From positions 1 through 64,000 of the forward strand of contig JAIQFO010000018.1 of NCBI GenBank assembly GCA_020073215.1: a stretch of DNA of 64,000 nucleotides. The letters run 5' to 3'. Made by a program: the position numbers and the translations under genes. The DNA comes from Terriglobia bacterium (GTDB taxonomy: Bacteria; Acidobacteriota; Terriglobia; Terriglobales; Acidobacteriaceae). Under the pieces are notes generated by a model. It made no database searches. It saw nothing but the letters and a program-made list of their open reading frames with translations, and had not been told where the DNA came from. Each line of letters opens with the position of its first letter. The stretch's first letter is position 1. Positions 3,775 to 58,939 of this stretch are shown in pieces.

Positions 3775-3867
3775 TACTCCTCCCTTCCGTCGACCAAGTT
3801 CCACAGACTCGTTCACGATCATTGATCTCATGGATTCAAGGGCTCTCAGCTCTGCGGTGAACACCGA

Positions 3868-5121: not shown

Positions 5122-8100
5122 AGAGCATTCCTCCTGTGCCGTGGATCAACGCGAATCGCTGGTCTGGCGAGACCCGGAAGTACGGATTCCCGGCGGCGAG
5201 CTGACTGAGGGCAAAACTCCGGCACTGGTCGAGACGGTGCCGGCTATTGGCGCTCTTCCGTATGACGTAACGGACCTTGCGGTCGCCGCGGCTGAGCAGC
5301 ACCGTCGCGCCGCTCCATAGGTCTATCTCATCGCTCTTGCGCCGCTGGACGAGAGTCACGACAAACTGATGAATCACCCGCCCATCGGGCCCCTGCCGCT
5401 CGGCGATGGCCACTGTATGCACCTCAAAGCTTGGCTCTGCATCCTCCAGATCGAGGCCGAGGGTCTGGGCTAAGTTGGCCCGCTCATTCGGTTGCAGGGC
5501 CTTAATGTGCTTACAAAGCGAAGTGTGCACAGCTCTGCGGGTATCGCGAGCGGCGTTGAAGAGCCGTTCGCGCGCACCGTCCACCGGAATGGCACGTTGT
5601 CCGGGTCCGGTGTCGATCCCAGGTATTTGGTTTGCCAACTGGTCGAGGTCGTTTCCAGCCGCGTGAAGGAACTTCTCCACGTCGTCAGACTCCGGAGACC
5701 GCCAGAGCAGTGTCTCTTCGCCGAAAGTGCCGAGGTTTACGGGAAAAACGGCTCGCTTGCGGAAACTCTCCGCAATGGCAACCCGATAGCCCAATGGATC
5801 GTTTGGGACCAGGTCGTGATCGGCAGTGATTAGCGCCCGCAGATAGTCGCCGAAATTGAGGTCCACCGGAGGGCAGTAGTCCAAAGCCCGGATACACACC
5901 AACAGAAATTGTGAGGCTAGTTTCGACGCTTCGGCGGCGAAGCGCCGGACCAGGTCCGGGTGGATATCGCCCTTCGGCAGAACTCCCGTGCCGCCGGTAG
6001 CAATCCGCGCAAGGTCCACCGTTCTTGCGCGGTAGATAGTCAGAAAGGCGTCAAAGATGGCAGCCACGAGAATAGCGCCCCGAGCGTGGATCTCCGTGGT
6101 CTGTGCCAGGGCGTAGTAATCAGGCCGTCCAGTCTTCGGGTCGGTGCCACCGCCAATCGCAGTGCGAAGTGGCGCGTGCATCCCAGTGGCCTTTCCGAAT
6201 TCTCGCGCCATTTCCAGCAAAGCGTTGTCCAACGCGAGGTCTCCACGCGTCCTGCGGATTTGGGATTCCACGACGCTGGTGACTGTGAAATGTTGCAGCA
6301 GTGCGACAATATCGGCGAACGCTTCATGGAAGGCCAACTGGTCGGGATTCGTCGGAATGTTGAAGTCGCGATAGATGCCATCGAGAATGGCGTGCGTGGC
6401 CTCGTGTGCGACGATGTCGTGTGACAGGCAGGCAAAGGTGGTTCCCCCGGAGTACATCTCGGCTGGATCTGCGGGCTGCGCTGGGAAATACCCGAACAGT
6501 AGCGCCTTCTTTCCCGGATGATAGAAAGCATTCCGCTCACGCAACGCATGCGGGTGGATACGAAGCCGACGAACAAACTTGCTGTCATCCCGAGTGCCCT
6601 CTCGCATGTCCGGTGACCATTGGACACGCCGACCAAGCGCGAGTTCGAAGTTGCGGATGGTCCGCATCGTAATCGCGTAAACCATCTGTTGGTGAAACTG
6701 CGGGCTTCCAGGTGAAGGTGCCAAGCCGTCGATGGCGAGTAGGTGCTTGTGATCTAGCTCCACGGCCGGGTAGTAGCATCCGCTCGCCGGATCGTGGTCG
6801 ATGACCTCGACATACTCTCCCGTAGGGCCAGGTGCAAGATTTTCCCAAGGCAGTTCCAAAGTGATCTGGTTGAACTGGAATGTCTCGAAACTGCCGGAAA
6901 GGCTCGGGTCGAATGCATACGCACGCAGGCGACGATTCACCGGCTCAGGTGGTTCAGGTTCTATGGCCGGAGGAGGAGGATCGATAGGATGGCGAGGTAG
7001 GACACGCCTGGACCGCTGGTATGTGCGGTCGAATACATGTTTCAGGGTCTCCGAGGCATACGGACTGTCGATGATTGCCGCGGTGAGCCTTCGCCTTTCC
7101 TCATCGCTCATCACGCCGCTGTCGGGATCGGCCACGGCAGCCTCGACGTTGGGATCGCGGTGAATCAGTTGTACGGTTTCAAGCCAGAGCATTTTCCGGG
7201 CGTTTTCTTCGGTCTTGCCTGCGGCGAGTCCAAACGAGAAACTTTCGAACATCAGTTGGAAAGCTGGCAGAAGGACCGAGTCCCTTGGCTCGGGGGCGTC
7301 CGGAGGCTCGGGTGTGATCTGGAGCGCATCGAATGCGCGAAGGACTCCGGCACCCAAGTAGGGCTGACTGTCGGGAAGCTTCTTCGCACTTCCAAATAGG
7401 GCACGCCGTACCGACTCGACAACCTGCCACGGCTGCCAGCCTGTCGTCCTGTGCTTGTGCTTTCGGAGGTACAGCGCAGCAGCGCCCGCGACCTGCGGCG
7501 TCGCCGATGAGGTTCCCTGACCGTCCAGATCTACTATCATCGGGCTCCCTAATTCTGCCCACGGGGTGTTCGGCGTGAAGGCGGCAAGAGAAGTACGCAT
7601 CTTGCTCGACGGCCCAGAGTTGCCGCGCATTTTCAGCTCTTTCACGTCCAGAGTGGCATAGGGTTCAAAAGCCGCGGTGACTCCCGTCGCTGAAATCACC
7701 CGATTAAATCGCGCAGGGAAGACCGTGCTCTTTGGCGAACGCAGGGGGCCTAGCAAGGGAATATTGTTGCCCGCAGCGGTTACAACCAGAATGCCCTTCT
7801 CATACGCACGATTCACCACGTCAGCCCAGGCGGCACTTCCGGCGCCACCCATGCTCATCGAGACTACGTCGGTGTGGATGCCCGCATCGTGGAGTGCAAT
7901 CAGATGTTCAATGGCTTGAACAAAAGTCGATGTATCCAGCAGCACGACGCTGGTCGCGATGCGTAAGGGAATAACCTCAGCTTGCGGCACTGCTCCGAGA
8001 AAACGATCCGCTGGAACCGGCTCCGCAGTGAGAATTCCGTCCGGCAATTCACCTGCAGCAAGGAGTGCAATAGTTCCAGTTCCGTGGCCTGCGTTCTGCA

Positions 8101-8656
8101 GCAAACCCTGAATCTTCCGATCACGGACGTTGTTCGGAGCCGCGTCCGGCAGGAAGTTCCGCGCCAAATCCATGCGAGCCCGTTCTTTGGGAAAGGTCGT
8201 GTGGTCGAGGTCAAACCCGACATCGCAGATTGCCACCCGCACGACGCTCGGTGTCCCCGTGTCGGCATCAGTCCTCGCCTGCGCAAGCTGTGTATACGAC
8301 TCCGTACGGTGCCAGCCAAAGCCTGGACCGCGGATCCTGTCCCCGACCTCCCCAACCTGGTCGTTGGGAATACCGACATCCCCGTTGCCAGTCGCGCCGA
8401 GCCCTGCCAAGGGCCCCTCTGCCACATGGAAACCGCTGGGATAGTCCGGTTCGAAGAATTGATCCGGCGTTTCTCGTACCGCTTCGTAGGCAACCTCCCA
8501 TGCATCCCCTGCCCGGCCAATCGGCACACGAAGTTCCGCCACGCTCCAATCCCCGCCCAGATCGCGATGATCACTCACCGCGGTCCCGGCCAACTGGCAG
8601 GGTTCTGACGGCAACGTCCCCGAGGCCTTGTTAATCAGTAGCTTTGCGATGGGCAT
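5114..8656 (-). CDS. subtilisin-like (S8) protease fused to gluzincin metallopeptidase domain
   Basis: 1180 residues. The N-terminal half is a subtilase with all three catalytic segments: VRVAICDVG (Asp about 145), NAGHGTG (His about 191) and GTSSATPQVAG (Ser about 373), plus the oxyanion-type TAAGNN loop near 295. After a proline-rich linker (about 555-572) the second half contains DIVAHEATH (HExxH at 751-755) and a downstream HEAFAD with a likely third ligand Glu about 778, the gluzincin (thermolysin-clan) pattern. Both active sites look intact, which is an unusual combination in one chain. No signal peptide is evident, while neighbouring genes encode exported proteins. Start chosen at ATG 8656 behind GAGGA. 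It overlaps the MBL gene by 8 bp. Confidence 0.85.
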   Translation of the reverse strand: MPIAKLLINKASGTLPSEPCQLAGTAVSDHRDLGGDWSVAELRVPIGRAGDAWEVAYEAVRETPDQFFEPDYPSGFHVAEGPLAGLGATGNGDVGIPNDQVGEVGDRIRGPGFGWHRTESYTQLAQARTDADTGTPSVVRVAICDVGFDLDHTTFPKERARMDLARNFLPDAAPNNVRDRKIQGLLQNAGHGTGTIALLAAGELPDGILTAEPVPADRFLGAVPQAEVIPLRIATSVVLLDTSTFVQAIEHLIALHDAGIHTDVVSMSMGGAGSAAWADVVNRAYEKGILVVTAAGNNIPLLGPLRSPKSTVFPARFNRVISATGVTAAFEPYATLDVKELKMRGNSGPSSKMRTSLAAFTPNTPWAELGSPMIVDLDGQGTSSATPQVAGAAALYLRKHKHRTTGWQPWQVVESVRRALFGSAKKLPDSQPYLGAGVLRAFDALQITPEPPDAPEPRDSVLLPAFQLMFESFSFGLAAGKTEENARKMLWLETVQLIHRDPNVEAAVADPDSGVMSDEERRRLTAAIIDSPYASETLKHVFDRTYQRSRRVLPRHPIDPPPPAIEPEPPEPVNRRLRAYAFDPSLSGSFETFQFNQITLELPWENLAPGPTGEYVEVIDHDPASGCYYPAVELDHKHLLAIDGLAPSPGSPQFHQQMVYAITMRTIRNFELALGRRVQWSPDMREGTRDDSKFVRRLRIHPHALRERNAFYHPGKKALLFGYFPAQPADPAEMYSGGTTFACLSHDIVAHEATHAILDGIYRDFNIPTNPDQLAFHEAFADIVALLQHFTVTSVVESQIRRTRGDLALDNALLEMAREFGKATGMHAPLRTAIGGGTDPKTGRPDYYALAQTTEIHARGAILVAAIFDAFLTIYRARTVDLARIATGGTGVLPKGDIHPDLVRRFAAEASKLASQFLLVCIRALDYCPPVDLNFGDYLRALITADHDLVPNDPLGYRVAIAESFRKRAVFPVNLGTFGEETLLWRSPESDDVEKFLHAAGNDLDQLANQIPGIDTGPGQRAIPVDGARERLFNAARDTRRAVHTSLCKHIKALQPNERANLAQTLGLDLEDAEPSFEVHTVAIAERQGPDGRVIHQFVVTLVQRRKSDEIDLWSGATVLLSRGDRKVRYVIRKSANSRHRLDQCRSFALSQLAAGNPYFRVSPDQRFALIHGTGGMLYD

Positions 8657-17250: not shown

Positions 17251-17308
17251 CTTGAAAACCGGCATAACTGAAAGGGTATCGGGGGTTCGAATCCCTCCCT
17301 CTCCGCCA
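17251..17308 (+). pseudogene. 3' half of tRNA-Ser(UGA)
   Basis: From the anticodon loop (CTTGAAAACC, anticodon TGA) the sequence continues through a long class II variable arm, a T arm (GGGGGTTCGAATCCC) and acceptor strand to CTCTCCG-CCA. No matching 5' acceptor strand (CGGAGAG) or D arm is found upstream, so only the 3' half is here. Such halves are the attachment sequences carried by tRNA-targeting integrative elements. An intact tRNA-Ser(UGA) should lie elsewhere, probably left of the window. Confidence 0.75.
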
Positions 17309-17310
17309 GT
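17289..17310. other. attachment site, left end of integrative island
   Basis: 22 bp from GAATCCCTCC to CTCCGCCAGT, the end of the tRNA-Ser fragment, recur exactly at 56661-56682. The tyrosine integrase starts 98 bp further in. The orientation (tRNA 3' end facing int) is the usual one for tRNA-integrated islands. Confidence 0.7.
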
Positions 17311-17407: not shown

Positions 17408-18640
17408 ATGCGCAAGCCGAAAGCCAGCCTATACCTTAGATTCCGCATGCCGGACGGGAAGCAGTCCCCGTACTATCCGGCTCTATTCGACAACAAGTCC
17501 CGCATCCGTCCGTTCTGGTGCCTGGTCAAAGGCACGCCGGAACACCATCCAGAGGCTACCTATTACAAGCGCGTGAAGCGCGAAGGCAAGTGGGGATGGG
17601 AATCGGTCGGCAGCGACGCCAACACCGCTTGGACGAAAGCGCAAGCAGGAAGCATCTGTCCGGCAGTCTCAACCACGGCACCGGAGCACAAAGAGCCGGA
17701 CGCGCCGACCGCCAAGGACGGCTACCGCTTGGACGAAGAAATCGCGGTCTACCTGTCAAACGTCGCGAAGCTCTCGCCGAAGACCTACAAGGCGTACAAG
17801 CGAAGCCTCGAAGTGTTCCGGCAGTCCTGCAAGAAGGTTTATGTCCACCAGATCACCAAGCAAGACCTGCAAGCGTTCGACACGTCCCTCATGGAGGACG
17901 GCAACGAAGACCGCACGCGGCACAACCGCGTGCAGCACGTGGTCACGTTCCTACGCAACGAAGAAGGTCGCCGCCTCGGTCCGGCGATCAAGGACGTGAG
18001 CATCACTGTCAAGTACGTCGAGGCACCACCGGAAGCGTACACGCGGCAGGAACTCGAAGACCTGTTCCGCGTGTCCGACGAGGACGAGAGGTCCCTGTGG
18101 CGGTTCTTCCTTGGCACCGGATTTCGCGAGGCGGAAGTCTCGGTCGCTGAGGTCACGGACGTGAACCACGACACCAAGACTATCCGCGTCGATGAGAAGA
18201 CCTACTTCGGATTCAAGCCGAAGGACTGCGAGAAGCGCAACGTTCCGATCCCGGACGCCTTGATCGCCGAGATTGATGCACGCGCCAAGTCGGGTTCGTG
18301 CTCGCTTTTGTTCGGGAATAACGGACGACCGGACGGTCACCTTCTGCGTGTGCTCAAGCACGTTGCCTTCGACGGCGGTCTCAACTGCGGCAAGTGCAAG
18401 GGAACCGTGGACGGCAAGGAAGTCTCGTGCGCGGAGGCCCCGGTCTGCGAAAAGTGGATCTTGCACCGCTTCCGCAAGAACTTCGCGACCGACCGCCACA
18501 ACGGCGGCGCAAGCGCGAGGAAGATACAGAAGTGGTTAGGCCATTCCAGCCTTGAGACCACGCTTCGGTATCTTGCGGTCGGCGACGACACCAGCGACGA
18601 GGTGCGCAGCATAGTCAATGGCGTCCACGTCGGTCTATGA
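17408..18640 (+). CDS. tyrosine recombinase (site-specific integrase)
   Basis: 410 residues. The N-terminal part has a SAM-like core-binding domain (KTYKAYKRSLEVFRQ, residues about 120-200). The catalytic domain has Arg in GTGFREAEVS (about 240), a HRFR box in WILHRFRKNFATD (about 354), His in WLGHSSLETT (about 379) and the nucleophile Tyr in TLRYLAV (about 388). A CGKC...C...C pair of cysteine clusters (about 325-350) may bind zinc. It lies directly beside the tRNA-Ser attachment fragment and mirrored arm sites, so it is the likely integrase of the island ending at 56.68 kb. Confidence 0.9.
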   Translation: MRKPKASLYLRFRMPDGKQSPYYPALFDNKSRIRPFWCLVKGTPEHHPEATYYKRVKREGKWGWESVGSDANTAWTKAQAGSICPAVSTTAPEHKEPDAPTAKDGYRLDEEIAVYLSNVAKLSPKTYKAYKRSLEVFRQSCKKVYVHQITKQDLQAFDTSLMEDGNEDRTRHNRVQHVVTFLRNEEGRRLGPAIKDVSITVKYVEAPPEAYTRQELEDLFRVSDEDERSLWRFFLGTGFREAEVSVAEVTDVNHDTKTIRVDEKTYFGFKPKDCEKRNVPIPDALIAEIDARAKSGSCSLLFGNNGRPDGHLLRVLKHVAFDGGLNCGKCKGTVDGKEVSCAEAPVCEKWILHRFRKNFATDRHNGGASARKIQKWLGHSSLETTLRYLAVGDDTSDEVRSIVNGVHVGL

Positions 18641-45686: not shown

Positions 45687-47424
45687 TCATTCACTGACGC
45701 GAAATGAAGGGTCCAGAACTACTGCTGCCAAAGAGATTCGAAGCGCGGTGTAATGCTGAGCAATTCCCTCCAAGGAATTGGTGAGCATTACATCGCCATT
45801 CCCTTGGAACAGGCTGACGTCCCCGGTTACCTCGAAGACAGAACCGTCCGGTGTTTGCTTCGGTGTGAGGACGAGCTTGGTGATGCGCTTCCGTAGTTGC
45901 TCGCGGGCTATCGCGGGGTCGCCCGCCAGAATCTTCACGAACTCTTGGGACTTGCGTTCGAAGAACTCGCGTATCTCTTCAATCGTGAACACGGGCACCT
46001 TCGGCGCCGAGCCAGCATTCCGAAGACGCTCGATTTGGACGATGCGAGCTTCCACGGAAGCAAGCCTCGCGGACAGAGCAGGCGAAAAGCCATGCTTCGC
46101 GATTGCGTCAACGAGATTGTGCTGCTCTTTCTTGAGAGTGGCGTGTTCATCTTTCAAGTGGGAGTCTTGCGATGCCGCTTCGCGGGCGCGCCTCGTGTCC
46201 GTATCCAGAGTCGCCTTGAGTTGGGTGCGGAAGGATTGGACGCGCTCTTCCTCCAGCCGCGGGTCAAGTAGGTTCGCGGAGAGGGCAGCTAGAAGTTGCT
46301 GCTCCAGTTTTCGTTGCGGGATGGTCACACTGTTCTTGCAGACGCCACGGCGGCGGTGATTGGGGCATCCGTAGCGCGCGTTCGGAGCCTGGCCGGAGAC
46401 GATTACTATATTCGCGCTGCACAGCCCGCATTCGAGCAAACTGCTGAACAAGTAAAGGCGGCTCGTCTTCGTCCGGTTCATTCCGCCAAGCCGCTTCGGA
46501 CCGTACTTCTCTCGCACACGACGGTTCTGCTCCCGGGCTGCCTGCCAGAGTTCGTGGGACACGATGCGCAACTCCGGCACCTCGACACGCACCCACTCGG
46601 ACTCCAGTCGGGGACGTTGTTCCGTCTTGCCGGTCTCGCGATTCCGGACCGTCTGCGTGCGATTCCATACCACAACGCCGCGGTACTTCTCGTTGAGCAG
46701 CATCTCGCGAATTGCCGAGGGGCACCACGCACGTATCTTCCCCTTGTGAGGTGCTTGCGGAGAGAGGATGCCCTCTGCGTTTAGAGTCTTGGCAATGTCG
46801 GCATAACTCGCTCCCGCGGCGTACATTTCAAAGATGCGAACGATAACCGCCTTCTCTTCGGGGATAATCTGCTGCAAAACTCCTATAACAGCGGGACGAC
46901 CATACTCGCCGCGGCGGTTTGGGTCTTCCACAGGAACGTTTCTATATCCGTAGCACTTGCCGCCGGGTACATAACCATTAAGAACGCGCCCGCGCTGACC
47001 GCGATGAACCTTATCGCGCAGTCCGAATACGTACTGTTCATTCATCATCCCGTGGAGGGTGAAGATCTGCCGGAATCCGGGTTGACGCGAATCCAGCCCT
47101 TGCGCGGCAAAGTAGAGGGAGACACCGTAGTTATCAAGAACGTCAGTCACCTTCAGTACGTCGGGCAAATATCGACCTAGGCGGGAACTGTCATCAATCA
47201 AAATGATGTCGAACGGTCGTGGGGCGGTCTTCGCCAGTCGGATAAGGTCATTGAGACCGTCCCTTCCGACCATGCTCTGTCCGGTGATCCCGGAATCTGC
47301 CCGGATGAAATCGTCGAGCACCGTCCAGCCCTTCTGTCCAGCGACAGCGCGACATTGACGAATCTGGTCGTCATTGGACGTCGGACGCTGCAGGTCGGAC
47401 GAGTAGCGCGCGTAGACGGCGCAT
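45687..47424 (-). CDS. large serine recombinase, frameshifted at its start
   Basis: From the stop at 45687 the frame encodes an N-terminal resolvase domain, recombinase domain and zinc beta-ribbon (LLECGLCSANIVIV ... YGCPNHRRRGVCKN), about 578 residues. Although a GTG at 47321 could start it, the same frame continues upstream to AVYARYSSDLQRPTSNDDQI with the catalytic Ser, so the functional start is near 47424. There an ATG (ATGCGC) is one frame away from AVYARYSS, and the in-frame region has no start codon. One extra base would give MR-AVYARYSS. It is therefore a frameshift mutation, a sequencing error or an unusual start. Mediates integration or excision between att sites. Confidence 0.8.
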
Positions 47425-50728: not shown

Positions 50729-50900
50729 AACGTTTTCCCCTTCGGCCATAGTATACAGCGGTGAATTGAAAATCGTCTAGAAATTGGCTAGTTTTCCAAT
50801 AAATCTTTGGTAACAATAGGCAAGTGATTGATAATAAATAGGTTATGTTGTCTTGTATAATACCTACAGATACTCTATAGTATGCACAGGAGTATGCAAT

Positions 50901-51989
50901 ATGCGTTTACGCAAGACCATCCGACTCAACGGCACCGACTACCAGATCGACTCTGAGAAAATCGTCCGGCTCGCCTCTCGTCTCGAACCGAAGGGCATCG
51001 ACAAATATTGGACCAAGATCCAGGGCCGCCGATTTCCTCCTAAACAAATCGTGTCTGAGTTGCTTGGTGTTCCGCTCGTGGACTTCACGACCATGGACGC
51101 GAGCCGCATCCTGAGCGCGGTTGGACTCCAGGTGCAATCGGCGAACGACAAACCTGAGCCGGCCAGAACTCAATCCGAAACGTTGCTGCCAGAATACTTC
51201 CGGGCCCACGGGTTGACCGACATTGAAGTTGAGCCAGCTATCGAGAACAGCAACAATCGGCCCGATTACCGGTTGCGTGCGGATGGTACCGAGGTGCTGC
51301 TGGAAGTTGAGGATTTCAGTGCGAAACCTGAAGACCTTCGCGTCCGCGGTGGTACCTATAACCCGTATGGTCCAGTCCGAGAAACAATCAGTGCCGCACG
51401 AAGGAAATTCAAGGATATGGAGGAGCACTGCTGTTGCCTAGTTCTGCAGAACCAGGAGAAGCTGCGGATCGGCCTCAACTGGCAGATCGTCATCGGAGCG
51501 ATGCTCAGCGACCTCGGGCCCCCCCTCTCCGCGAGCACTATCACTGGAAAGGGTGAAATCTCGAAGACAGAGCACTTTGCTCAGGGAGACGGAGGGACTA
51601 CCGAGCATATGGCGATTGCACCGGAGAACACGATCGTCAGCGCAATAATCGTGGTCGAACGATACGCGATTGGCGAAAAACGATTTCGCCTTTTCGTGCA
51701 CGAACGGGAGCAGGAGTTGGGACGAGAACTTAGTGTTGGAGAATGTCTGCAGTCAGTAGAACAGTCGGCGGGCACCGAGCGTGAGCTCTCATTGAACCAA
51801 ATACGAGTTCGAGTTCACGAGAATCCGTACGCGAGAGTTCCCCTCGATCGTCGCTTGTTCCGTGGACCGTTCGATGAGCGGTATGGTGTGGTTGAGGACC
51901 CGAATCGATGGGGCCAAATTTATGCGGGCCGAGGTGTCGCCGAGTTTGAGAGACAATCGGCGGCAGCCAAGCTCCTCAGCAGATCATAA
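50901..51989 (+). CDS. protein with SCNV-type N-terminus and PD-(D/E)XK-like core, unknown
   Basis: 362 residues from ATG behind AGGAG. N-terminal segment (LNGTDYQIDSEKIVRLA, WTKIQGRRFPPKQIVSELLGVP) resembles a specificity or sensing domain found in restriction-like proteins. The middle has RPDYRLRADGTEVLLEVEDF, a D...ExE arrangement close to, but not the same as, a D...ExK nuclease site. Further parts (IAPENTIVSAIIVVERYAI, RVHENPYARVPL) look like an MrcB/DUF-type fold. Function uncertain. A TATAAT lies about 50 bp upstream of the start. Confidence 0.5.
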   Translation: MRLRKTIRLNGTDYQIDSEKIVRLASRLEPKGIDKYWTKIQGRRFPPKQIVSELLGVPLVDFTTMDASRILSAVGLQVQSANDKPEPARTQSETLLPEYFRAHGLTDIEVEPAIENSNNRPDYRLRADGTEVLLEVEDFSAKPEDLRVRGGTYNPYGPVRETISAARRKFKDMEEHCCCLVLQNQEKLRIGLNWQIVIGAMLSDLGPPLSASTITGKGEISKTEHFAQGDGGTTEHMAIAPENTIVSAIIVVERYAIGEKRFRLFVHEREQELGRELSVGECLQSVEQSAGTERELSLNQIRVRVHENPYARVPLDRRLFRGPFDERYGVVEDPNRWGQIYAGRGVAEFERQSAAAKLLSRS

Positions 51990-52030: not shown

Positions 52031-53443
52031 TTACCGATCGATGCTGGCGTCGCAGAATTTTATTCCGGCCGAATCCTGCGCAGTGTAGTTGCGACTTGTT
52101 TCCGCGAATCTCCTGTCCAGGCCCGTTAGCGCGACTTTGATATCCGTGTAGGATGGCCCGTCATGCAAGAGCCTTATCGCCTCGGCCAGAACAACAGTAG
52201 CTGCAGTCGCTCCGACGAACGGAACTGCGACGGACTTGCCTGCCAGCTCCGCCCGTCCGCACTCGTCATTGGCCAGCTGCGCGTAAGCAGGGTTTTCCCT
52301 CGCAAGACGTTCCCGCTTTTCGCGCCGCCTAGTTTCTTCCGCCGGCGTGAGATCGGGCCACAACTCCTCTGCCGTGCGAGGATTCGGGAGCGTATGGAAA
52401 CTGATCGTCTCAAAGTTGTCTTTGTCGCCGCCGAGGCCGCTTTCCATCACGCGTGCAAACCCCGCCGTAGCAAGATCGCGGCGGGCGGGATTTGAATCGA
52501 AACCGCAGAGCGCCAGCCGCGGCTCGGTCTGCGGCGGCGCGGTACGGCAGCGGAAATTGGAATCAAAAGGCCGTTCGACCAGCCTGGTCCTGAAGCCGCG
52601 TTCCTCCATCCATTTGCTGCATATCCGCGTCTTGAGCTGGCCTTCATCCTTCGGGGTGAAAATCATCCCCGTTTCGACGTTTTCCGGCTCAACCTTGTCA
52701 AAATCGTTGAGATAGATTTCACTTGCGTTCCACTGCGCGTAAGGAAGCGCCGCTAGCCCCCATAGATAGGAGTTGCCGAGGTGACCGAGACCGAGGACCC
52801 AAAGGTCACGCGGCAGAACCTCCACCGGCACGCCAAGTGCAGCGGGATCGCTGATGGGAAGATCGGGCCGCCAGAGGGAAAGCCCGACTGCGCGTCGTCC
52901 AGCCTCGATGCTGAGTTCCGCGAAGACGAGGAACATTTCGGAAATCGCTAGCGCGCCGGCGAGGACGCCCGAAAGAGCGCAATATTGCCTCTGCGGGAGC
53001 GGATCGACACTCGCCGCCGGTCCGACCTTCACGATCCACCCGTCAAAGGTGACGCGAAGCGCACCTCGAACAGCGGCCGCATTCCCGAATAGCAGTGCAG
53101 GGCCCTCAATTTCAGATTTGGCCGCGGCGCACAGGCTGTTCGGGCCAACGATGTCTGCGAGGGCCGAACCGAGTGTGCATGCGAGCGAAGGCCACACCAG
53201 AAGGCGCGCATCGGCAACATCGCGCTCCAGCACGACCCTGACCGCGCCTGGAAAGCAGCGCGCCGCGATATTGGTGGCCGTGAGCACAGCCAGTTGCAAT
53301 GTTCGGGATTGTTCAACATCCGTCCCGCATCGGAGAGTGATCCCGAAGCGCTCTCGCCGCGCGAGCGCCTCCTGTGTGGACAATGCGCTGCTGTCGACGA
53401 GCAGCTTCGAGATGCGGGAGAGCGTGATGCTGGAAACGTCCAT
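52031..53443 (-). CDS. E1-like (ThiF-type) ubiquitin-activating enzyme
   Basis: 470 residues. An N-terminal region of about 210 residues precedes the Rossmann adenylation domain: LWVLGLGHLGNSYLWGL (GxGxxG at 218-223), EIYLNDFDKVEPENVETGMI (acidic loop), LALCGFDSNPARRDL and DECGRAELAGKSVAVPFVGA, with Cys395 as the candidate thioester cysteine. C-terminal helix AEAIRLLHDG. Starts 3 bp past the JAMM gene stop (TGAATATG), so coupled. Predicted to adenylate the C-terminus of the Ubl from 54431 and load it on E1. A 621-residue frame that starts inside the JAMM gene is spurious. Confidence 0.85.
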   Translation of the reverse strand: MDVSSITLSRISKLLVDSSALSTQEALARRERFGITLRCGTDVEQSRTLQLAVLTATNIAARCFPGAVRVVLERDVADARLLVWPSLACTLGSALADIVGPNSLCAAAKSEIEGPALLFGNAAAVRGALRVTFDGWIVKVGPAASVDPLPQRQYCALSGVLAGALAISEMFLVFAELSIEAGRRAVGLSLWRPDLPISDPAALGVPVEVLPRDLWVLGLGHLGNSYLWGLAALPYAQWNASEIYLNDFDKVEPENVETGMIFTPKDEGQLKTRICSKWMEERGFRTRLVERPFDSNFRCRTAPPQTEPRLALCGFDSNPARRDLATAGFARVMESGLGGDKDNFETISFHTLPNPRTAEELWPDLTPAEETRRREKRERLARENPAYAQLANDECGRAELAGKSVAVPFVGATAATVVLAEAIRLLHDGPSYTDIKVALTGLDRRFAETSRNYTAQDSAGIKFCDASIDR

Positions 53444-53445
53444 AT

Positions 53446-53943
53446 TCACCAGAGCGTCAAACTTACGCGGTGTTTCCCGCGAGATAAGGGATGGCTGCGC
53501 CATTCGAAATTGCCGAGATACTCGTGTATGCCGGCCCCGTCGAGCGACCACCACGAGGTATTCCCGAAATTGGGAACGATAATTGCGGTATGGTCCTGCA
53601 CCGGGATCATCGGGTTTCGCTTGTCGATGGGGCTCTGTCCGACATTCCGCCCCGGATGAGTGTGCACGTCGGCAACAACACGCAGCTTGTTCTTCCTGCA
53701 ATGCCCCCATAGCGCCGCGTGGCCGACCGCGTGAAAAGCGATGGCGCCTCCCTGATAAGCATTCGGATCGAGATCGTCGTAGCAGATGAACGCGGTGACA
53801 TGATCGGAAGGGCCGTCCTGCGGTGCCAACAGAAAGGCGCCGCTCTCCCTTTCTCCCATTCCACGCAGCCGCAGCTGAATGACTATTCGGCGCCAAAGCC
53901 AGATCGGAATGCGGATCGAGTTCCGAGCAGGATCAGAGGCCAA
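53446..53943 (-). CDS. JAMM/MPN metalloprotease (deubiquitinase-like)
   Basis: 165 residues from TTG. MPN+ motif: Glu33 in ERESGAFLL, then ADVHTHPGRNVGQSPID with H94, H96, S104 and D107, complete for zinc-dependent isopeptidase activity. Predicted to process or remove the Ubl made by this operon. The TTG start overlaps the end of the E2-like gene by 11 bp. Another start is not evident. Third gene of the Ubl-E2-JAB-E1 unit. Confidence 0.85.
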   Translation of the reverse strand: MASDPARNSIRIPIWLWRRIVIQLRLRGMGERESGAFLLAPQDGPSDHVTAFICYDDLDPNAYQGGAIAFHAVGHAALWGHCRKNKLRVVADVHTHPGRNVGQSPIDKRNPMIPVQDHTAIIVPNFGNTSWWSLDGAGIHEYLGNFEWRSHPLSRGKHRVSLTLW

Positions 53944-54427
53944 GATAGTCTCCGCAGTTCAGGAGTGAATGGAACTCTTCCAGATAGTCGACGATCGTGT
54001 GGTTGCTGTCCCAAACAAGACTGGGCTGATCCTTGGCCCAGTCGGGGTGGCCTTGGGCCGCCACGCGGTCGTAGGGGTGATAGAAAGCTCTGCCGCCTTC
54101 CCAGTCGGTGCGGAACACTTTGGCGAAACGGCTGTCCGGCCTTCCCTTGGGGCGCTTGGCAAATTCGAGAGTGGCCTTGGTGCTCGGATCCCAAAACGTG
54201 CTGGTGGGAGGGACCGTCCGGTAGTTCGAAAGGTCGAGCTGAACATAGAAGCGATCCGGAGCGTTCGGCCGCGAAGCCGCCGCCATCCATAGAATGCGCG
54301 CCGACCAGGCCAGTTGGTCCGGCAGAACATCCGCGCCGGCCAAGCCCCAATATCCCTTCAGGGCGCCCACACGGAATTCGGCCGATGCGACGTCAGCCTC
54401 GAACAAACGCTGGTCGGGTTTATCCAT
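53933..54427 (-). CDS. E2-like (UBC/RWD-fold) protein, lacks cysteine at the usual place
   Basis: 164 residues. RFYVQLDLSNYRTVPPTSTF resembles the beta-sheet and PP-turn of UBC/E2 folds, followed by GRAFYHPYDR, HPDWAKD and VDYLEEFHSLL. In active E2s the catalytic Cys sits in the segment represented by GRAFYHPYDR, but no Cys is found here. The only cysteine is C158 in NCGDYLGL at the very C-terminus. It could use that Cys, be a non-catalytic scaffold, or belong to an alternate E2 subclass. Starts 3 bp after the Ubl stop and overlaps the JAMM gene. Confidence 0.7.
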   Translation of the reverse strand: MDKPDQRLFEADVASAEFRVGALKGYWGLAGADVLPDQLAWSARILWMAAASRPNAPDRFYVQLDLSNYRTVPPTSTFWDPSTKATLEFAKRPKGRPDSRFAKVFRTDWEGGRAFYHPYDRVAAQGHPDWAKDQPSLVWDSNHTIVDYLEEFHSLLNCGDYLGL

Positions 54428-54430
54428 CCG

Positions 54431-54970
54431 TCACCCCTGCGGGGTGATCTCCTTCACCAGGTCGAAGCAGATCGCGCACGTCGGCAGAGCGACCAGTTCG
54501 CCGAGATGCTCGCCGAGACGCGGTTGTTTGTCCGTGTTGCAGAGGCGCAAGACGTATTCCGCTCCAGCAGCGCCGTCCAGTTTGAATTTCTTTTTCGCCC
54601 ACCGGATGACGGCGCCAATCGTCGTCGCAGGGGAGAAGCGGTGGCGCTTGGTCTGGCCGTTGAAGTTGACCTCGACGGCGACCCGCTTGCATTTATGGAC
54701 GTGCACGTGCCTGTGCCGGTGGAGTTCCAGGACCTCAACCGTCAGCAAAACATCGACCGGGTTATGCTTGTCTTCGCCGTCTTCGATTTCGTCGGCCTCG
54801 CTGAGTGCTTCCTCCCACTCGCCGACGAAAATCAGCACGTCGTCCTGGCCCTGCTTGATAATTCCTTCCCGCACGAGAACATCCCTGAGGACCTCGTGCG
54901 GACGCGCCACAGCGATTTTGGGTTTTGCACCCTGGCTGTGGATATACAGCTCAAGTTCTTCACCGGCCAT
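54431..54970 (-). CDS. double ubiquitin-like (beta-grasp) protein
   Basis: 179 residues from ATG behind AAAGGAGA. Two tandem beta-grasp repeats: about 6-80 (ELELYIHSQGAKPKIAVA, LIFVGEWEEA) and about 96-174 (RVAVEVNFNGQTKRHRFS, TTIGAVIRWAKKKFKL, YVLRLCNTDKQP), with acidic and basic linkers. The protein ends PQG, a single C-terminal glycine, not GG. No trailing residues need to be removed before activation, so the JAMM protein would serve as an isopeptidase. First gene of the Ubl-E2-JAB-E1 operon. Confidence 0.8.
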   Translation of the reverse strand: MAGEELELYIHSQGAKPKIAVARPHEVLRDVLVREGIIKQGQDDVLIFVGEWEEALSEADEIEDGEDKHNPVDVLLTVEVLELHRHRHVHVHKCKRVAVEVNFNGQTKRHRFSPATTIGAVIRWAKKKFKLDGAAGAEYVLRLCNTDKQPRLGEHLGELVALPTCAICFDLVKEITPQG

Positions 54971-55111
54971 TTGCCGTCTCCTTTGGGCGCTCCTCGCCGG
55001 GGACTTGCATCCGCCGGCGCAAGGTGCGATAGTTGGTGTCCACCTGGGCAACATTACTGGCTAACGCCTCGGTCGAAGCTTTCGCAGTAAGACGAGACTT
55101 CGACTTAGTGT

Positions 55112-55131
55112 TGTTGTCCAGTCAGACAACA
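55112..55131. promoter_or_regulatory. inverted repeat between Ubl operon and XRE gene
   Basis: TGTTGTC CAGTCA GACAACA is a perfect 7-bp inverted repeat with a 6-bp spacer. It lies 40 bp before the XRE start and 142 bp before the Ubl start, in the divergent promoter region. Likely the operator of the XRE regulator and probably controls both units. Confidence 0.65.
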
Positions 55132-55170
55132 GTTTGCCAGAGTGCATATTCTTGTCAAGGGGGAGGTGTA

Positions 55171-55563
55171 ATGGCTCAACCTGCATTCGGGGTCCTGCTT
55201 CAACGACTACGGGAGCAAAGGGGACTGTCGTTGCGCGAACTGGCGCAACTTGCCGGGATTGATCATGCTTATATCTACCGTCTGGAAACTGGCGACAAGG
55301 AATCTCCGTCGGAAGAGGTGCTGACAAAATTAGTCCGCGCCCTGAAGGCCGGCAAGCGCGAAGCCGAAATGCTCCGCTATCTCGCGGCGCACCCCCACAT
55401 CGATCCGGGATTGGTGGCGTACGCGCTCGCTGATACGACGGTGACCATCGAGGAGTTCTCTTCGGTGGCGGGCGTAGCCTTTCGTGGAACGAGCAGGCCG
55501 GATTACCCTAAACTGATCGAACGCGTGCGAAGAATCTTGCTGGAAGAAAATGGCAATCGATGA
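55171..55563 (+). CDS. XRE-family HTH regulator
   Basis: 130 residues from ATG behind GGGGGAGG. Helix-turn-helix in FGVLLQRLREQRGLSLREL, AQLAGIDHAYIYRLETGDK, SPSEEVLTKLVRALK. The C-terminal part may contact its partner. It overlaps the ImmA gene by 14 bp, a common pairing in which ImmA cleaves the XRE repressor to switch on the controlled genes. Predicted repressor of the Ubl operon through the inverted repeat. Confidence 0.85.
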   Translation: MAQPAFGVLLQRLREQRGLSLRELAQLAGIDHAYIYRLETGDKESPSEEVLTKLVRALKAGKREAEMLRYLAAHPHIDPGLVAYALADTTVTIEEFSSVAGVAFRGTSRPDYPKLIERVRRILLEENGNR

Positions 55564-56440
55564 ATTCCGGGCAGTCCTCAAGGCGCGGGAATTTGTTCGG
55601 AAGGTGAACCCCGCTACCATCCCAGTTCCCATCGAAATGTATGCTCGGGAACTGGGAGCGGTTATCCGTCCGCAGACCGATCTCGGACCGGATGAAGCTG
55701 GATATTGTTTCAAGAACAATGGCAAGCATTTCATCTGCACCAATGCCAATGACAAACCGGAGCGTCAGAGGTTCACGGTCTGTCATGAGATCGCCCACAT
55801 CGTGCTCGGACTGCCCTCGCAGCATGGCGCATCGCCCTGGTGGAGTTACGCGAAAAAGCCTCTCGCCGAAATACTCTGTGATGTTTTTGCGGCGGAACTA
55901 CTCCTTCCATATGACCTCTTCCAGCCACAAGCAGAGAAGTCGAGCATCAGTCTCGCTGCCATCGACGATCTCGCGGAGCGCTTTCAGGCATCCGCGACCG
56001 CAACGGGTTCCCGATATGCGGCCGTGGTGAGCACACCGCTGGCGTTCGTGCTTTCGGAGCAAGGCAAGGTGCGGTATGCGTCGAGGTCGAACCAGTTGAA
56101 GGACGCCTATGCCTGGATTCCGCCCCGTCTCGATTTGCCCGACGGCTGCTTTTCCAAAAAGGTGCGCTCCGGCGCAGCCTGCGACAGTCCCGAGGAGGTC
56201 GATGCGGGCATCTGGTTCAGTGATTGGGAACGCGGCGGCATCTTGCTGGAGGAGGCCCGCCACCTCGCGCCATGGGATCAGACCCTTACGCTGCTGTGGT
56301 TCGAGGACGGAGAGGTTCCGCCGCAGAAGTTCCGAGATGATCGAGGCGAGATCCACGAAAAAGAAGACGATGACAACGACGGGCTTCTGCAGGAACTGGA
56401 CGGAAAACTCCGTTGGCCTGGGAAGCGTCGCCGGAGATAA
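55550..56440 (+). CDS. ImmA/IrrE-family metallopeptidase
   Basis: 296 residues. HEIAH at 79-83 in RFTVCHEIAHIVLG and the third ligand Glu in AEILCDVFAAELLLP (about 107). N-terminal VNPATIPVPIEMYARELGAVI matches the family. C-terminal domain about 190-296 is an extra region with a charged end (KEDDDNDG, KRRRR). Overlaps the XRE gene by 14 bp. In relatives the peptidase cleaves the XRE repressor after DNA damage or phage infection. Confidence 0.88.
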   Translation: MAIDEFRAVLKAREFVRKVNPATIPVPIEMYARELGAVIRPQTDLGPDEAGYCFKNNGKHFICTNANDKPERQRFTVCHEIAHIVLGLPSQHGASPWWSYAKKPLAEILCDVFAAELLLPYDLFQPQAEKSSISLAAIDDLAERFQASATATGSRYAAVVSTPLAFVLSEQGKVRYASRSNQLKDAYAWIPPRLDLPDGCFSKKVRSGAACDSPEEVDAGIWFSDWERGGILLEEARHLAPWDQTLTLLWFEDGEVPPQKFRDDRGEIHEKEDDDNDGLLQELDGKLRWPGKRRRR

Positions 56441-56660: not shown

Positions 56661-56682
56661 GAATCCCTCCCTCTCCGCCAGT
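56661..56682. other. attachment site, right end of integrative island
   Basis: Exact 22-bp copy of the tRNA-Ser 3' end at 17289-17310 (GAATCCCTCC to CTCCGCCAGT). The rest of the tRNA is not present here. Marks the right border of a 39.4-kb segment that starts at the integrase. Confidence 0.65.
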
Positions 56683-56991: not shown

Positions 56992-57323
56992 TTCCCCGCC
57001 CTTACCGGCCCCTCCGTATTCCCCGCCGATGTCGATGCCAGCTCGCCTTCGAGAGCGTCGCGAACCTCCTCCAGAGTTTTGCCGATCCACCCCAATCCCA
57101 TCAGCATAGACCCGGAGATCAAGCCTCCGGCAATCACCGCCGCGCCCACCAGGCGCGCCACTTGCCACTTCACCACATCCATCACCGTCATGGGATTGCC
57201 TTCGCCACCACCGGCTTGGATGTGAGTTTGGTATTCCCGGTAACTGGACGACAACTCGATGGATCCCACGACCACACAGAAAACGACAATTACTATTCCC
57301 AGCAACATCAAGTAACGGCTCAC
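56988..57323 (-). CDS. two-TM protein coupled to lnt
   Basis: 111 residues starting with GTG at 57323 inside the lnt stop region (GTGA). N-terminal TM helix (LMLLGIVIVVFCVVVGSI) and a second (LVGAAVIAGGLISGSMLMGLG), separated by a short polar loop, then a soluble C-terminus. No family recognised. Tight coupling suggests it is made with Lnt. Confidence 0.6.
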   Translation of the reverse strand: MSRYLMLLGIVIVVFCVVVGSIELSSSYREYQTHIQAGGGEGNPMTVMDVVKWQVARLVGAAVIAGGLISGSMLMGLGWIGKTLEEVRDALEGELASTSAGNTEGPVRAGN

Positions 57324-58939
57324 CTCGTCCCCCCTGTCCGCATTTTCTTCCTGAGCGCCAGCAGAAAAAATCCTCCCAGCGCTGTATAGGATACATAAAC
57401 AATCAGATCACCGAAACGGGTATAGAAACTCAGGTTGTCGGTGATGGGCACTTTCTGGGAAACGATGGTTTCGGTGAAGATTTTGGTCTTCTGCTGCCAG
57501 CGCCCAAGCGGATCGACGAAGCCGGAGATTCCGGTATTGCCGCAGCGCACCATAGCCTCGCGGTTTTCGATGGCGCGCAACACCAGAAAGGACGCGTGCT
57601 GCGAGGGCGCGAAGGAATGGCCGAACCAGGCGTCGTTGGTGATATTCACCAGAAAGTTGCTGCCCGCCAAACGCAGCCTCCGGGAAACTTGCGGATAAAC
57701 CGATTCGTAGCAGATCATTGCCGAGAAACTGGCTCCCGGCAGGTGGAAGACCGTCAATTCCGTTCCGGCATCCATCGCCCCGTAACTGATGTCATGGATG
57801 GGAAAAAATGCGCGGGTAAATCCAAAGATACTGCGGAAAGGATATTTTTCGGCGACGGGCACGAGATACATTTTCTTGTACACAGCCAGACTCTGGCCGC
57901 GTGAATTGAACAGCTCCGCGGCGTTGAAATAGTGAACTTGCCCTTGCCTGTCCTGCGAAGAAGTGAGGAGCCCGGTAAGAACGTAAGTGTTGCCCGGAGG
58001 CAGAGTCCCCATTTGGGTGAGGCGGAACTCCTTACTTTCATCAATGTAGTAAGGAATTGCCGTTTCCGGCCAGACCACAAGATTTGTGAAATCCGTGGTC
58101 GCAGCCGCGTTCATGGTAAATATGTGATCCAATATCTGGCGTGCGTAGCGATCATCCCACTTGATTTTCTGCGGAATATTCGGCTGGATAACAGCAACTT
58201 CCTGATACCCCGCGGGCGCGATCCCGCGAAACCACCGTACGCCGTTATAGAGATTGACGAAACCGAAGATCACAACCCAGGCAATGGCGTGCCGTCGCAA
58301 CCGGACTGGATCGCGACGGGCAGCGATGGCTTCGAACAGCAGCGCATTGAGCAGGACCAGCCAGAACGATACGCCAAAAACTCCGACGATGTCGGCGAAT
58401 TGAATTAGAAACGGAAATCCGGTCAGCGCACAGCCCAGATTGCTCCAGGGAAAGGCCATGTCGCCATAGCCACGCAGCCCTTCGCAGGCCACCCAGGCAA
58501 AAGGAGCCGTGGCCCAGAACGGCAACGCAAGATATTTCTTTAACATGACGACCGGAAGGATAAAGACGAAGAAACTGAAGACATAAAGCCAAATAATGCA
58601 GATGTAGCCTGGCACCGAGAGCCAGGAGAATGCGACCATGCCCGCCAGCCAACTGAGCGTGAACCCGTAAAGGACCCACGGACAGATCAGCCCGGCGCGA
58701 ATGATTCGCCTGCGGCTGAGCGGCTTGTCGAGATAAATGAAAAGCGGAACCAGACCGACAAACGCCAAAAAAAACAAATTCGTGGGAGCAAACGCCAGCC
58801 CTAAGAGCAACCCTGACAACGCCGGCAAGAAATCTTCCTTGCTCCAGGTACTGCCCTGCGAAGGTGCAGCCTGCGTTGACCCGGTTGCAGGGATGGCAGT
58901 AGAATCCGGGTTCGTCACCAGGTAAGAAGGGTTAACCAT
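57320..58939 (-). CDS. lnt: apolipoprotein N-acyltransferase
   Basis: 539 residues. Transfers an acyl chain to the N-terminal cysteine of lipoproteins in the inner membrane, the last step of lipoprotein maturation. N-terminal multi-TM domain (FAPTNLFFLAFVGLVPLF to YGDMAFPWSNLG), then a nitrilase domain with the catalytic triad Glu in LVVWPETAIP, Lys in VYKKMYLVPVAEKYP and Cys in MICYESVYP. It starts at ATG 58939 opposite the start of the TPR lipoprotein gene (shared CATG). lgt lies 3.7 kb away, so two lipoprotein-maturation genes are close together. Confidence 0.93.
   Translation of the reverse strand: MVNPSYLVTNPDSTAIPATGSTQAAPSQGSTWSKEDFLPALSGLLLGLAFAPTNLFFLAFVGLVPLFIYLDKPLSRRRIIRAGLICPWVLYGFTLSWLAGMVAFSWLSVPGYICIIWLYVFSFFVFILPVVMLKKYLALPFWATAPFAWVACEGLRGYGDMAFPWSNLGCALTGFPFLIQFADIVGVFGVSFWLVLLNALLFEAIAARRDPVRLRRHAIAWVVIFGFVNLYNGVRWFRGIAPAGYQEVAVIQPNIPQKIKWDDRYARQILDHIFTMNAAATTDFTNLVVWPETAIPYYIDESKEFRLTQMGTLPPGNTYVLTGLLTSSQDRQGQVHYFNAAELFNSRGQSLAVYKKMYLVPVAEKYPFRSIFGFTRAFFPIHDISYGAMDAGTELTVFHLPGASFSAMICYESVYPQVSRRLRLAGSNFLVNITNDAWFGHSFAPSQHASFLVLRAIENREAMVRCGNTGISGFVDPLGRWQQKTKIFTETIVSQKVPITDNLSFYTRFGDLIVYVSYTALGGFFLLALRKKMRTGGTR

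What the first reader, a model, noticed from the sequence alone, without database searches (positions are those of the whole stretch)
52031..55131. Four-gene ubiquitin-like conjugation operon with E1, E2-like, JAMM and double-Ubl genes
Seen: tightly coupled minus-strand genes for a double beta-grasp protein, an E2-like protein, an intact JAMM protease and a ThiF-type E1, with gaps or overlaps of 3-11 bp. Established: this gene set defines bacterial Ubl systems (Iyer and Aravind lineage; the Bil system is the best characterised). Inference: this may be a defence or stress system carried by the tRNA-Ser island. The double Ubl with a single C-terminal Gly and the E2 variant differ from textbook forms.
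Basis: partly seen in the sequence, partly recalled or inferred. Interest (0 to 1): 0.82.

Follow-up and report, generated by a model that had tools for sequence, protein, structure and literature searches.

The report
Ubiquitin-like defence operon, cysteine-less E2
A soil bacterium carries, at one end of a mobile DNA island, a four-gene ubiquitin-like tagging system of the kind that protects bacteria from phages, next to a likely DNA-damage switch; oddly, the enzyme that should carry the tag lacks the cysteine that most of its relatives keep at that site, which suggests that the tag is attached in another way.

Summary
Four overlapping minus-strand genes at 52031-54970 match PADLOC BilA, BilB, BilC and BilD nearly end to end (152, 166, 186, 444 bits). 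The Ubl models as a double beta-grasp; the E2-like protein's best structural match is the E2 of a solved bacterial E1-E2-Ubl complex, at modest scores. They sit at the far end of a tRNA-Ser island bounded by a 22-bp repeat, 17289 to 56682. So this is a Bil-type system, a known kind.

New here: (1) the divergent genes at 55171-56440 match CapH and CapP, the ssDNA-triggered repressor/protease pair; a palindrome between them and bilA, with a second copy 75-78 bp away, occurs in 8 of 17 loci of its clade and 0 of 76 others. (2) BilB has Tyr where 63 of 93 rows have Cys, the only invariant Cys in 31 Cys-type BilBs. All 17 clade members read YHPYDR; 7 have no Cys in the BilB domain. JAMM residues, Ubl Gly and, bar one short frame, the E1 Cys stay. 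I propose that E1 passes the Ubl directly to targets, with BilB as pseudo-E2. Protection and conjugation are untested.

The parts
54431..54970 (-). bilA: double beta-grasp ubiquitin-like protein, 179 aa, tail ...KEITPQG, no extension after the Gly
   Evidence: PADLOC BilA 152.5 bits; AlphaFold pLDDT 91.2; Foldseek to di-Ub, ISG15, FAT10, 8u38
53933..54427 (-). bilB: E2-like protein, 164 aa, DUF7665, with Tyr119 (YHPYDR) in place of the Cys kept by Cys-type homologues
   Evidence: PADLOC BilB 165.9 bits; Pfam DUF7665 130 bits; AlphaFold pLDDT 96.2; Foldseek top hits 8tyz_C and 8tz0_C; alignments
53446..53943 (-). bilC: JAMM protease, 165 aa (TTG start), metal-site residues E33, H94, H96, S104, D107 intact
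   Evidence: PADLOC BilC 186.3 bits; these residues kept in 93 of 93 rows
52031..53449 (-). bilD: E1, 472 aa (GTG start), adenylation site GLGHLG, presumed catalytic Cys397 (DECG) intact
   Evidence: PADLOC BilD 444.1 bits; Pfam ThiF weak; alignment A1
55171..55563 (+). capH: HTH repressor, divergent from bilA (ATG chosen by me; the ORF opens at 55033)
   Evidence: PADLOC capH 51.8 bits; Pfam HTH_31 57.9 bits
55550..56440 (+). capP: IrrE/ImmA-type Zn peptidase with HEIAH
   Evidence: PADLOC capP 181.2 bits; Pfam Peptidase_M78 56.3 bits
55112..55131 (.). palindrome TGTTGTC-N6-GACAACA, candidate CapH operator 1 (-167 from the bilA domain start)
   Evidence: 0 mismatches; 0.14 sites with up to 2 mismatches expected in the whole window; conserved
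55034..55053 (.). second, imperfect copy of the palindrome, candidate operator 2, 78 bp from the first
   Evidence: 2 mismatches; pair with 75-78 bp spacing in 8 of 17 Tyr-type loci
17289..17310 (+). left att repeat (tRNA-Ser 3' end), island boundary
56661..56682 (+). right att repeat (22 bp identical), island boundary
17408..18640 (+). tyrosine integrase of the island
   Evidence: Pfam Phage_integrase 49.1 bits

Best explanation
This is a Bil-type (type I, DUF7665) ubiquitin-like conjugation system, most likely anti-phage, switched on by DNA damage or phage DNA processing through CapH/CapP, at the distal end of a tRNA-Ser integrative island. At rest CapH sits on two palindromes between the divergent genes and holds bilABCD down. 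Single-stranded DNA activates CapP, CapP cuts CapH, and the operon is expressed (inferred from homology and the conserved palindromes). BilD adenylates the C-terminal Gly of BilA and loads it on Cys397. Because BilB lacks the family's cysteine, I propose that BilB acts as a pseudo-E2: it holds the E1~BilA thioester and the target, and E1 passes BilA directly to the target, probably a phage structural protein, as reported for the Collimonas Bil. BilC removes BilA again. Shown here: gene content, folds (BilB at modest score), kept JAMM and E1 residues, no Cys at the E2 column in the whole clade, conserved paired palindromes, purifying selection. Inferred: repression, induction, direct transfer, phage target. 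Confidence per step: Bil-type system 0.95; CapHP control 0.85; phage defence 0.7; conjugation without an E2 thioester 0.5.
For: All four PADLOC Bil models match nearly end to end; both folds supported. capH/capP match PADLOC. capP-type genes flank bilA in 15 of 17 Tyr-type loci (13 by phmmer, the window, L018 and L019 being themselves queries; L035 and L039 by PADLOC). Palindrome (up to 2 mismatches) in 8 of 17 Tyr-type loci, 0 of 76 others, 0.045 of 17 by shuffling. Of 93 rows with a residue at the column, 63 Cys, 17 Tyr, 7 Trp, 3 Leu, 2 Ser, 1 Phe. In A6 (31 Cys-type BilBs) the only invariant Cys is this one; in the Tyr clade no Cys is conserved and 7 of 17 BilB domains have none. E1 Cys column: Cys or gap in every row; 14 of 17 Tyr-type rows show it. 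JAMM residues 93 of 93. pN 0.10-0.27 against pS 0.53-0.86 in 24 of 24 gene pairs. BilA tail R-[VI]-x-G becomes T-P-[QK]-G and BilD Ser becomes Glu255 in the same clade. One BilB match in this genome. E2-free conjugation of archaeal SAMPs is stated in PMC11354881 (passage).
Against: No experiment here shows conjugation or protection. The Cys at this column is called catalytic because it is the only invariant one in Cys-type BilBs; hhalign did not align this region with type II BilB, and by eye type II Cys138 could align either with it or three residues earlier, so the site is not proven. Foldseek scores for BilB are modest (no hit at E <= 0.001). The tree cannot tell loss of the Cys from gain. 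Of three Tyr-type rows without the E1 Cys, two are cut by locus ends, but in L041 the bilD frame ends before it with no such motif in the last 240 bases of the contig. 9 of 17 Tyr-type loci lack the palindrome, and no capP was found at L034 and L051. The capP model is not specific: it hits 99 of 199 genomes of the phylum and 4 of 14 controls at E <= 0.001, though only 8 places score 160 bits or more. No sigma-70-like promoter was found between bilA and capH.
Confidence: 0.55

Rival explanations
1. BilB is a real E2 whose acceptor is a different residue, such as Tyr119 (ester) or His, at the same site; the chemistry is unusual but the E1-E2-target relay is kept.
For: YHPYDR is invariant in 17 of 17 Tyr-type loci and H127 is invariant across the 67 rows of A5, as expected of an active site rather than a decayed one.
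Against: Other lineages have Trp, Leu or Phe at the column, which cannot accept a Ubl; Tyr esters as E2 intermediates are unknown to me (recalled).
Confidence: 0.12
2. The system no longer conjugates: BilA, BilB and BilD act by binding, as a sensor or inhibitor complex, and BilC is a leftover or has another task.
For: An inactive E2-like domain in bacterial polyUbl operons is stated in PMC11354881 (passage). At L041 bilD ends before its Cys.
Against: The E1 Cys is there in 14 of 14 Tyr-type rows that reach it, the five JAMM residues in 93 of 93 rows, and BilA ends in Gly in 17 of 17; purifying selection on all four genes.
Confidence: 0.2
3. The Tyr-type system borrows a Cys-bearing E2 from elsewhere in the genome.
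For: One Bradyrhizobium genome (G419) carries two Bil loci.
Against: The window's genome has one BilB match and no Prok-E2_B match, though that second search rang nowhere in its controls and other E2 families were not sought; G419's second BilB is Trp-type, not Cys-type.
Confidence: 0.1
4. The operon serves a general stress response rather than phage defence.
For: CapHP senses DNA damage; PMC13373217 (passages) says that related Bub operons have not been shown to protect against phage.
Against: The closest characterised kind, Bil of Collimonas, blocks phage by tagging the central tail fibre (PMC11364771 passage); location on an integrative island.
Confidence: 0.2

Closest known systems
Bil (bacterial ISG15-like) system as modelled in PADLOC (the names type I and type II, and the link to Millman 2022, Hor 2024 and Chambers 2024, are recalled; those papers were not held)
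   Same: Gene order A-B-C-D; all four PADLOC models match nearly end to end; double Ubl, E1 with Cys, JAMM.
   Different: Family's E2 Cys absent; BilA tail TPQG; BilD Ser to Glu255; CapHP instead of the IrrE-UvrD module seen at 47 of 63 Cys-type loci.
Type II BilABCD (DUF2604 Ubl, Metal_CEHH E2, Prok-E2_C/ThiF E1; Sinorhizobium L110; PDB 8tyz, 8tz0, 8tyx)
   Same: E2 fold, BilC homology (89 bits), four genes.
   Different: Its Ubl is a 98-aa DUF2604 protein and its E2 has C138-E144-H146-H151; BilB not aligned over the active site by hhalign.
CapH/CapP regulators
   Same: HTH repressor plus IrrE-type peptidase, divergent from a putative immune operon.
   Different: The passages seen of PMC13373217 name BREX, Pycsar, CBASS, DISARM and Bub as partners of CapW or CapHP, and Bil with CapKS; they do not name Bil with CapHP.
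[quoted passage not shown]
   Same: Ubl, E1 and JAB kept while the E2-like part is inactive.
   Different: There JAB and E1 are fused; here the four are separate and the Cys-less E2 has Cys-bearing sisters in the same family.
E1-only systems: SAMP (PMC11354881 passage) and Urm1 (recalled)
   Same: Conjugation without a working E2.
   Different: They have no E2-like protein (recalled).

Membership tests
Bil system | bilA-bilB-bilC-bilD gene set matching the family models | tested here: met
   PADLOC 152.5/165.9/186.3/444.1 bits, near full length
Bil system | BilA with two beta-grasp domains and a C-terminal Gly | tested here: met
   tail ITPQG
Bil system | BilB with E2 fold | tested here: met
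   (modest scores; ranks 1, 2 and 4 are bacterial E1-E2-Ubl chains)
Bil system | BilB with a catalytic cysteine | tested here: not met
   Tyr at the family's Cys column; no conserved Cys in the clade. Hence filed as a variant
Bil system | BilC JAMM residues | tested here: met
Bil system | BilD adenylation site and catalytic Cys | tested here: met
Bil system | Protects against phage by conjugating BilA | not testable with these tools
   needs bench work
CapH/CapP | HTH repressor gene beside IrrE-type peptidase with HExxH, next to an immune operon | tested here: met
   the capP model alone is not specific
CapH/CapP | Operator in the controlled promoter | tested here: inconclusive
   paired palindromes conserved in 8 of 17 loci; binding not tested
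CapH/CapP | ssDNA-triggered cleavage of CapH | not testable with these tools
   stated for the family in PMC13373217 (passage)
tRNA-Ser integrative island | Direct repeats of the tRNA 3' end plus integrase | tested here: met
tRNA-Ser integrative island | Empty site in a relative | not tested

The most novel reading that the evidence does not exclude
Bil systems come in two working modes: with an E2 thioester (Cys-type) and without one (Tyr-, Trp-, Leu-type), in which E1 hands the Ubl straight to targets held by a pseudo-E2; the Tyr-type, with a changed Ubl tail and E1 loop, is a coherent subtype under CapHP control. Beyond it, both modes are tied to an IrrE-family protease that senses ssDNA, either as CapP or fused to a UvrD helicase, often with a PD-(D/E)XK nuclease domain.
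Probability: 0.35. Interest if true: 0.8.

Novelty: new variant of a known kind. Interest (0 to 1): 0.58.

Why it matters
If right, ubiquitin-like tagging can run with an E2-shaped protein that has no active-site cysteine, which bears on how the E1-E2 relay arose and on what the E2 fold is for. It gives a natural set of Cys-bearing and Cys-less sisters in one four-gene system, so the question is directly testable in E. coli. It also adds Bil to the immune operons likely controlled by ssDNA-sensing proteases, with a specific operator to test.

Tried and rejected
Sequence search of the PDB with BilB, with a profile of Cys-type BilBs and with two remote BilBs gave no E2. hhalign of type I with type II BilB aligned only the N-terminal half, so the Cys site could not be mapped onto Cys138 by profile. 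A replacement Cys elsewhere in BilB was looked for and not found. A further conserved gene beside the Tyr-type operons was looked for: bilABCD and capP-type genes recur widely; a nuclease gene recurs at three loci (L018, L033, L038). Promoter and terminator scan of 54900-55300 found nothing. The phage collection has no BilB relative at E 1e-5. Rfam finds nothing in the window. Papers: the primary Bil papers and the CapHP paper are not held; searches for Bil, BilB or DUF7665 (two listed only unrelated papers), for IrrE, UvrD, ubiquitin-like and anti-phage together (0 papers) and for Cys-less bacterial E2 showed no report of a Cys-less Bil E2 in what I saw, but this library misses most subscription papers.

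The count of Tyr-type loci is biased: the genome scan was ranked by similarity to the query and kept 80 of 191. In a draw of 398 Pseudomonadota genomes 5 had a match; one of them, the centre G419, was chosen by me because it holds L033 and gave one Tyr and one Trp BilB; the other four gave three Trp BilBs and one type II-like protein, no Cys.
Full report
The finding. Four minus-strand ORFs at 52031-54970 lie 3 bp apart or overlap by 4 to 11 bp. PADLOC scores them as BilA, BilB, BilC, BilD at 152.5, 165.9, 186.3 and 444.1 bits over nearly the whole of each model. In Pfam only BilB clears a cut-off, as DUF7665 at 130 bits; ThiF and Prok-JAB fall short, and Multi_ubiq is absent. NCBIfam has no match over a cut-off for the four.

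Folds. An AlphaFold model of BilA from 38 rows (pLDDT 91.2) matches linear di-ubiquitin, FAT10, ISG15 and a bacterial multi-ubiquitin protein at E 7e-7 to 9e-6; talin FERM heads rank as high, and rmsd over both domains is 8-14 A in the rows listed. A model of BilB from 60 rows (pLDDT 96.2) ranks three chains of the bacterial E1-E2-Ubl complexes 8tyz and 8tz0 first, second and fourth of 135 (probability 0.97-0.99, TM 0.42-0.57, no E <= 0.001); most other entries of the top 31 name an E2 in their titles.

Active sites. BilC keeps E33, H94, H96, S104 and D107, as do 93 of 93 rows compared; BilD keeps GLGHLG, D249, K273 and Cys397. At the Cys397 column every row has Cys or a gap. Of the gaps, those of L006-L009, L011, L013 and L017 are proteins cut by the ends of the fetched loci; L041 is not: its bilD frame stops before the Cys, and the last 240 bases of that contig show no such motif in any frame. 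So 14 of 14 Tyr-type rows that reach the place have the Cys, and one ends early. BilA ends in Gly with nothing after it.

The E2. Among 11 BilBs of the window and plasmids, six have Cys in Y-x-[PA]-C-D-R, while the window, Mesorhizobium AR02 and Paraburkholderia read F-Y-H-P-Y-D-R. I fetched 80 more loci from named genomes with a BilD alignment (the best 80 of 191 confirmed, ranked by likeness to the query, so biased towards the window's kin). Of 110 sequences (109 loci and the window), 100 had a BilB match; five copies were dropped, two had a gap at the column, and 93 remain: 63 Cys, 17 Tyr (window included; L009/L031 and L019/L040 are near-identical pairs), 7 Trp, 3 Leu, 2 Ser, 1 Phe. Three of the non-Cys rows (L003, L013, L017) are remote. 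The Cys is the only invariant one in 31 Cys-type BilBs. The Tyr group shares YHPYDR, and a His and a Trp downstream, in 17 of 17; it has no conserved Cys, and 7 of 17 BilB domains, cut from their first matched residue, have none. Trp, Leu and Phe types show no conserved substitute.

Tree. A tree of 90 BilDs puts the 16 Tyr rows together with one Leu row (SH-aLRT 99); without L051 and L043 the 15 others are one clade (99). With four Trp-type rows added and near-copies and the remote L003 and L013 dropped (79 rows), Cys against not-Cys needs at least 4 changes, 3 of them forced by starred branches; gain and loss cannot be told apart. The Tyr clade spans Acidobacteriota, Alpha-, Beta- and Gammaproteobacteria and a Phycisphaeraceae MAG (record titles; ranks partly recalled). 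In the window's genus 3 of 24 genomes, the own one included, have a BilD match, the other two at 34% and 24% identity over part of it. In the Tyr clade the BilA tail changes from R-[VI]-x-G to T-P-[QK]-G (14 of 15 rows) and BilD changes Ser to Glu255 (15 of 15, against Ser in 60 of 60 Cys-type). These are one clade's changes, so their coupling is not a statistical result. In 24 of 24 within-clade gene pairs pN is well under pS (0.10-0.27 against 0.53-0.86; dS is often saturated).

Other samples. Of 396 genomes of the window's phylum 12, the own one included, had a BilB match at E <= 0.001, several of them remote. Of 398 Pseudomonadota genomes 5 had one. One is the centre G419, which I chose because it holds L033; it has that Tyr locus and a Trp one. 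The other four gave three Trp BilBs and one type II-like protein, no Cys. Of 396 genomes around the actinobacterial centre G420 two matched, the centre and one remote. The numbers are small, but BilBs without this Cys are not rare among them.

What the column is. Type II BilB (Sinorhizobium L110, Pfam Metal_CEHH) has C138, E144, H146, H151, as PMC11354881 describes (passages). In Cys-type BilBs an invariant His follows the Cys by 8 residues, the spacing of C138 and H146; but an alignment on the Arg would put C138 at Tyr116 instead. hhalign did not reach this region. I therefore call the residue the family's presumed catalytic Cys.

Regulation. The divergent ORFs at 55171-56440 match PADLOC capH (51.8 bits) and capP (181.2 bits). 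The capP model is loose: at E <= 0.001 it hits 99 of 199 genomes of the phylum and 4 of 14 control genomes, but only 8 places, this one among them, score 160 bits or more. PMC13373217 (passages) states that CapP is activated by ssDNA and cuts CapH; it lists five Bil operons with CapKS and 219 of 544 Bub operons with CapW or CapHP, and the passages do not name Bil with CapHP. The palindrome TGTTGTC-N6-GACAACA lies at 55112-55131, with a two-mismatch copy at 55034-55053. At up to 2 mismatches it occurs upstream of bilA in 8 of 17 Tyr-type loci (7 if L031 counts as a copy of L009) and 0 of 76 others (three of these copies), 0.045 of 17 being expected from mononucleotide shuffles; a second copy with up to 3 mismatches, for which no shuffle was run, follows 75-78 bp on in all 8. 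They include Acidobacteriota and two MAGs titled Silicimonas and Marinicaulis. A capP-type gene is found at 13 of 17 Tyr-type loci by phmmer (three of these supplied the queries) and at two more by PADLOC (L035, L039); none was found at L034, and L051 shows only a capH-like gene. A UvrD helicase was found upstream at 47 of 63 Cys-type loci and 0 of 17 Tyr-type (some loci are too short to show one). Nine of these helicases, eight from Cys-type loci and one from Leu-type L027, were scanned, and all nine have an N-terminal IrrE (Peptidase_M78) match, one below Pfam's cut-off; seven of nine also match PDDEXK_1. Of the 43 that are 1000 residues or longer, 42 have HExxH within the first 400 residues. 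So an IrrE-family protease accompanies both classes.

Island. The tRNA-Ser 3' end is repeated at 17289-17310 and 56661-56682 (22 bp identical), with a tyrosine integrase beside the left copy; an intact tRNA-Ser(TGA) is on contig C55. bil-capHP sit at the right end of this 39.4-kb stretch. An empty site was not sought.

Verdict. A Bil-type system, hence a known kind; the Cys-less E2 class with its own Ubl tail and E1 change, and the CapHP pair with its palindromes, make it a new variant. An inactive E2-like domain is on record for bacterial polyUbl operons (PMC11354881 passage), which keeps this below 'categorically new'. Phage defence rests on analogy with the Collimonas Bil (PMC11364771 passage).

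Noticed in passing
L022, L023, L025-L027, L046, L064, L082, L099 (upstream of bilA): Many Cys-type Bil operons follow a large IrrE-UvrD fusion, often with a PD-(D/E)XK domain; Pfam finds the IrrE domain in 9 of 9 scanned (one below cut-off, one of the nine from a Leu-type locus) and 42 of 43 long ones have HExxH. It looks like a ssDNA sensor fused to a helicase-nuclease; no paper held has IrrE, UvrD, ubiquitin-like and anti-phage together.
   Followed up: partly
L127, L128, L129, L131, L029: A Trp-type Bil group (YRPWDR, YRAWQR, YRGWQR) in Pseudomonadota, also without the E2 Cys.
   Followed up: partly
L133 and L015: Remote E2-like proteins with Cys at the Tyr116 column by eye (CHPCSR, CAPWNR); L133 has Cys at both columns, as if the active Cys had moved by three residues.
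   Followed up: no
window 50853-51989 (+): 378-aa ORF convergent with bilD, no Pfam match up to E 1; part of it looks by eye like a PD-(D/E)XK nuclease.
   Followed up: no
window 45687-47321 (-): Large serine recombinase inside the tRNA-Ser island (Pfam Recombinase); a relative lies next to the Bil operon of L043.
   Followed up: no
window 1270-8656 (-): Three-gene cluster: peptidase C13/caspase-like, metallo-beta-lactamase fold, subtilase, left of the island; may be another defence set.
   Followed up: no
window 57320-58939 (-): Apolipoprotein N-acyltransferase just right of the island; the genome has a second one on C17, and in the genus the best matches to the window's copy are only about 30% identical.
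   Followed up: no
L049 at 8315: The same 20-bp tRNA-Ser 3' end lies about 1 kb downstream of bilD in Mesorhizobium sp. dw_380, so another Bil operon may sit at such a site.
   Followed up: no
L113 at 1-1159: A remote Bil-like operon on a Bradyrhizobium plasmid also has an IrrE peptidase and an HTH gene upstream.
   Followed up: no
L041 at 5986-7116: In this Tyr-type locus the bilD frame ends before the E1 Cys near the contig end; real loss or an assembly fault.
   Followed up: partly
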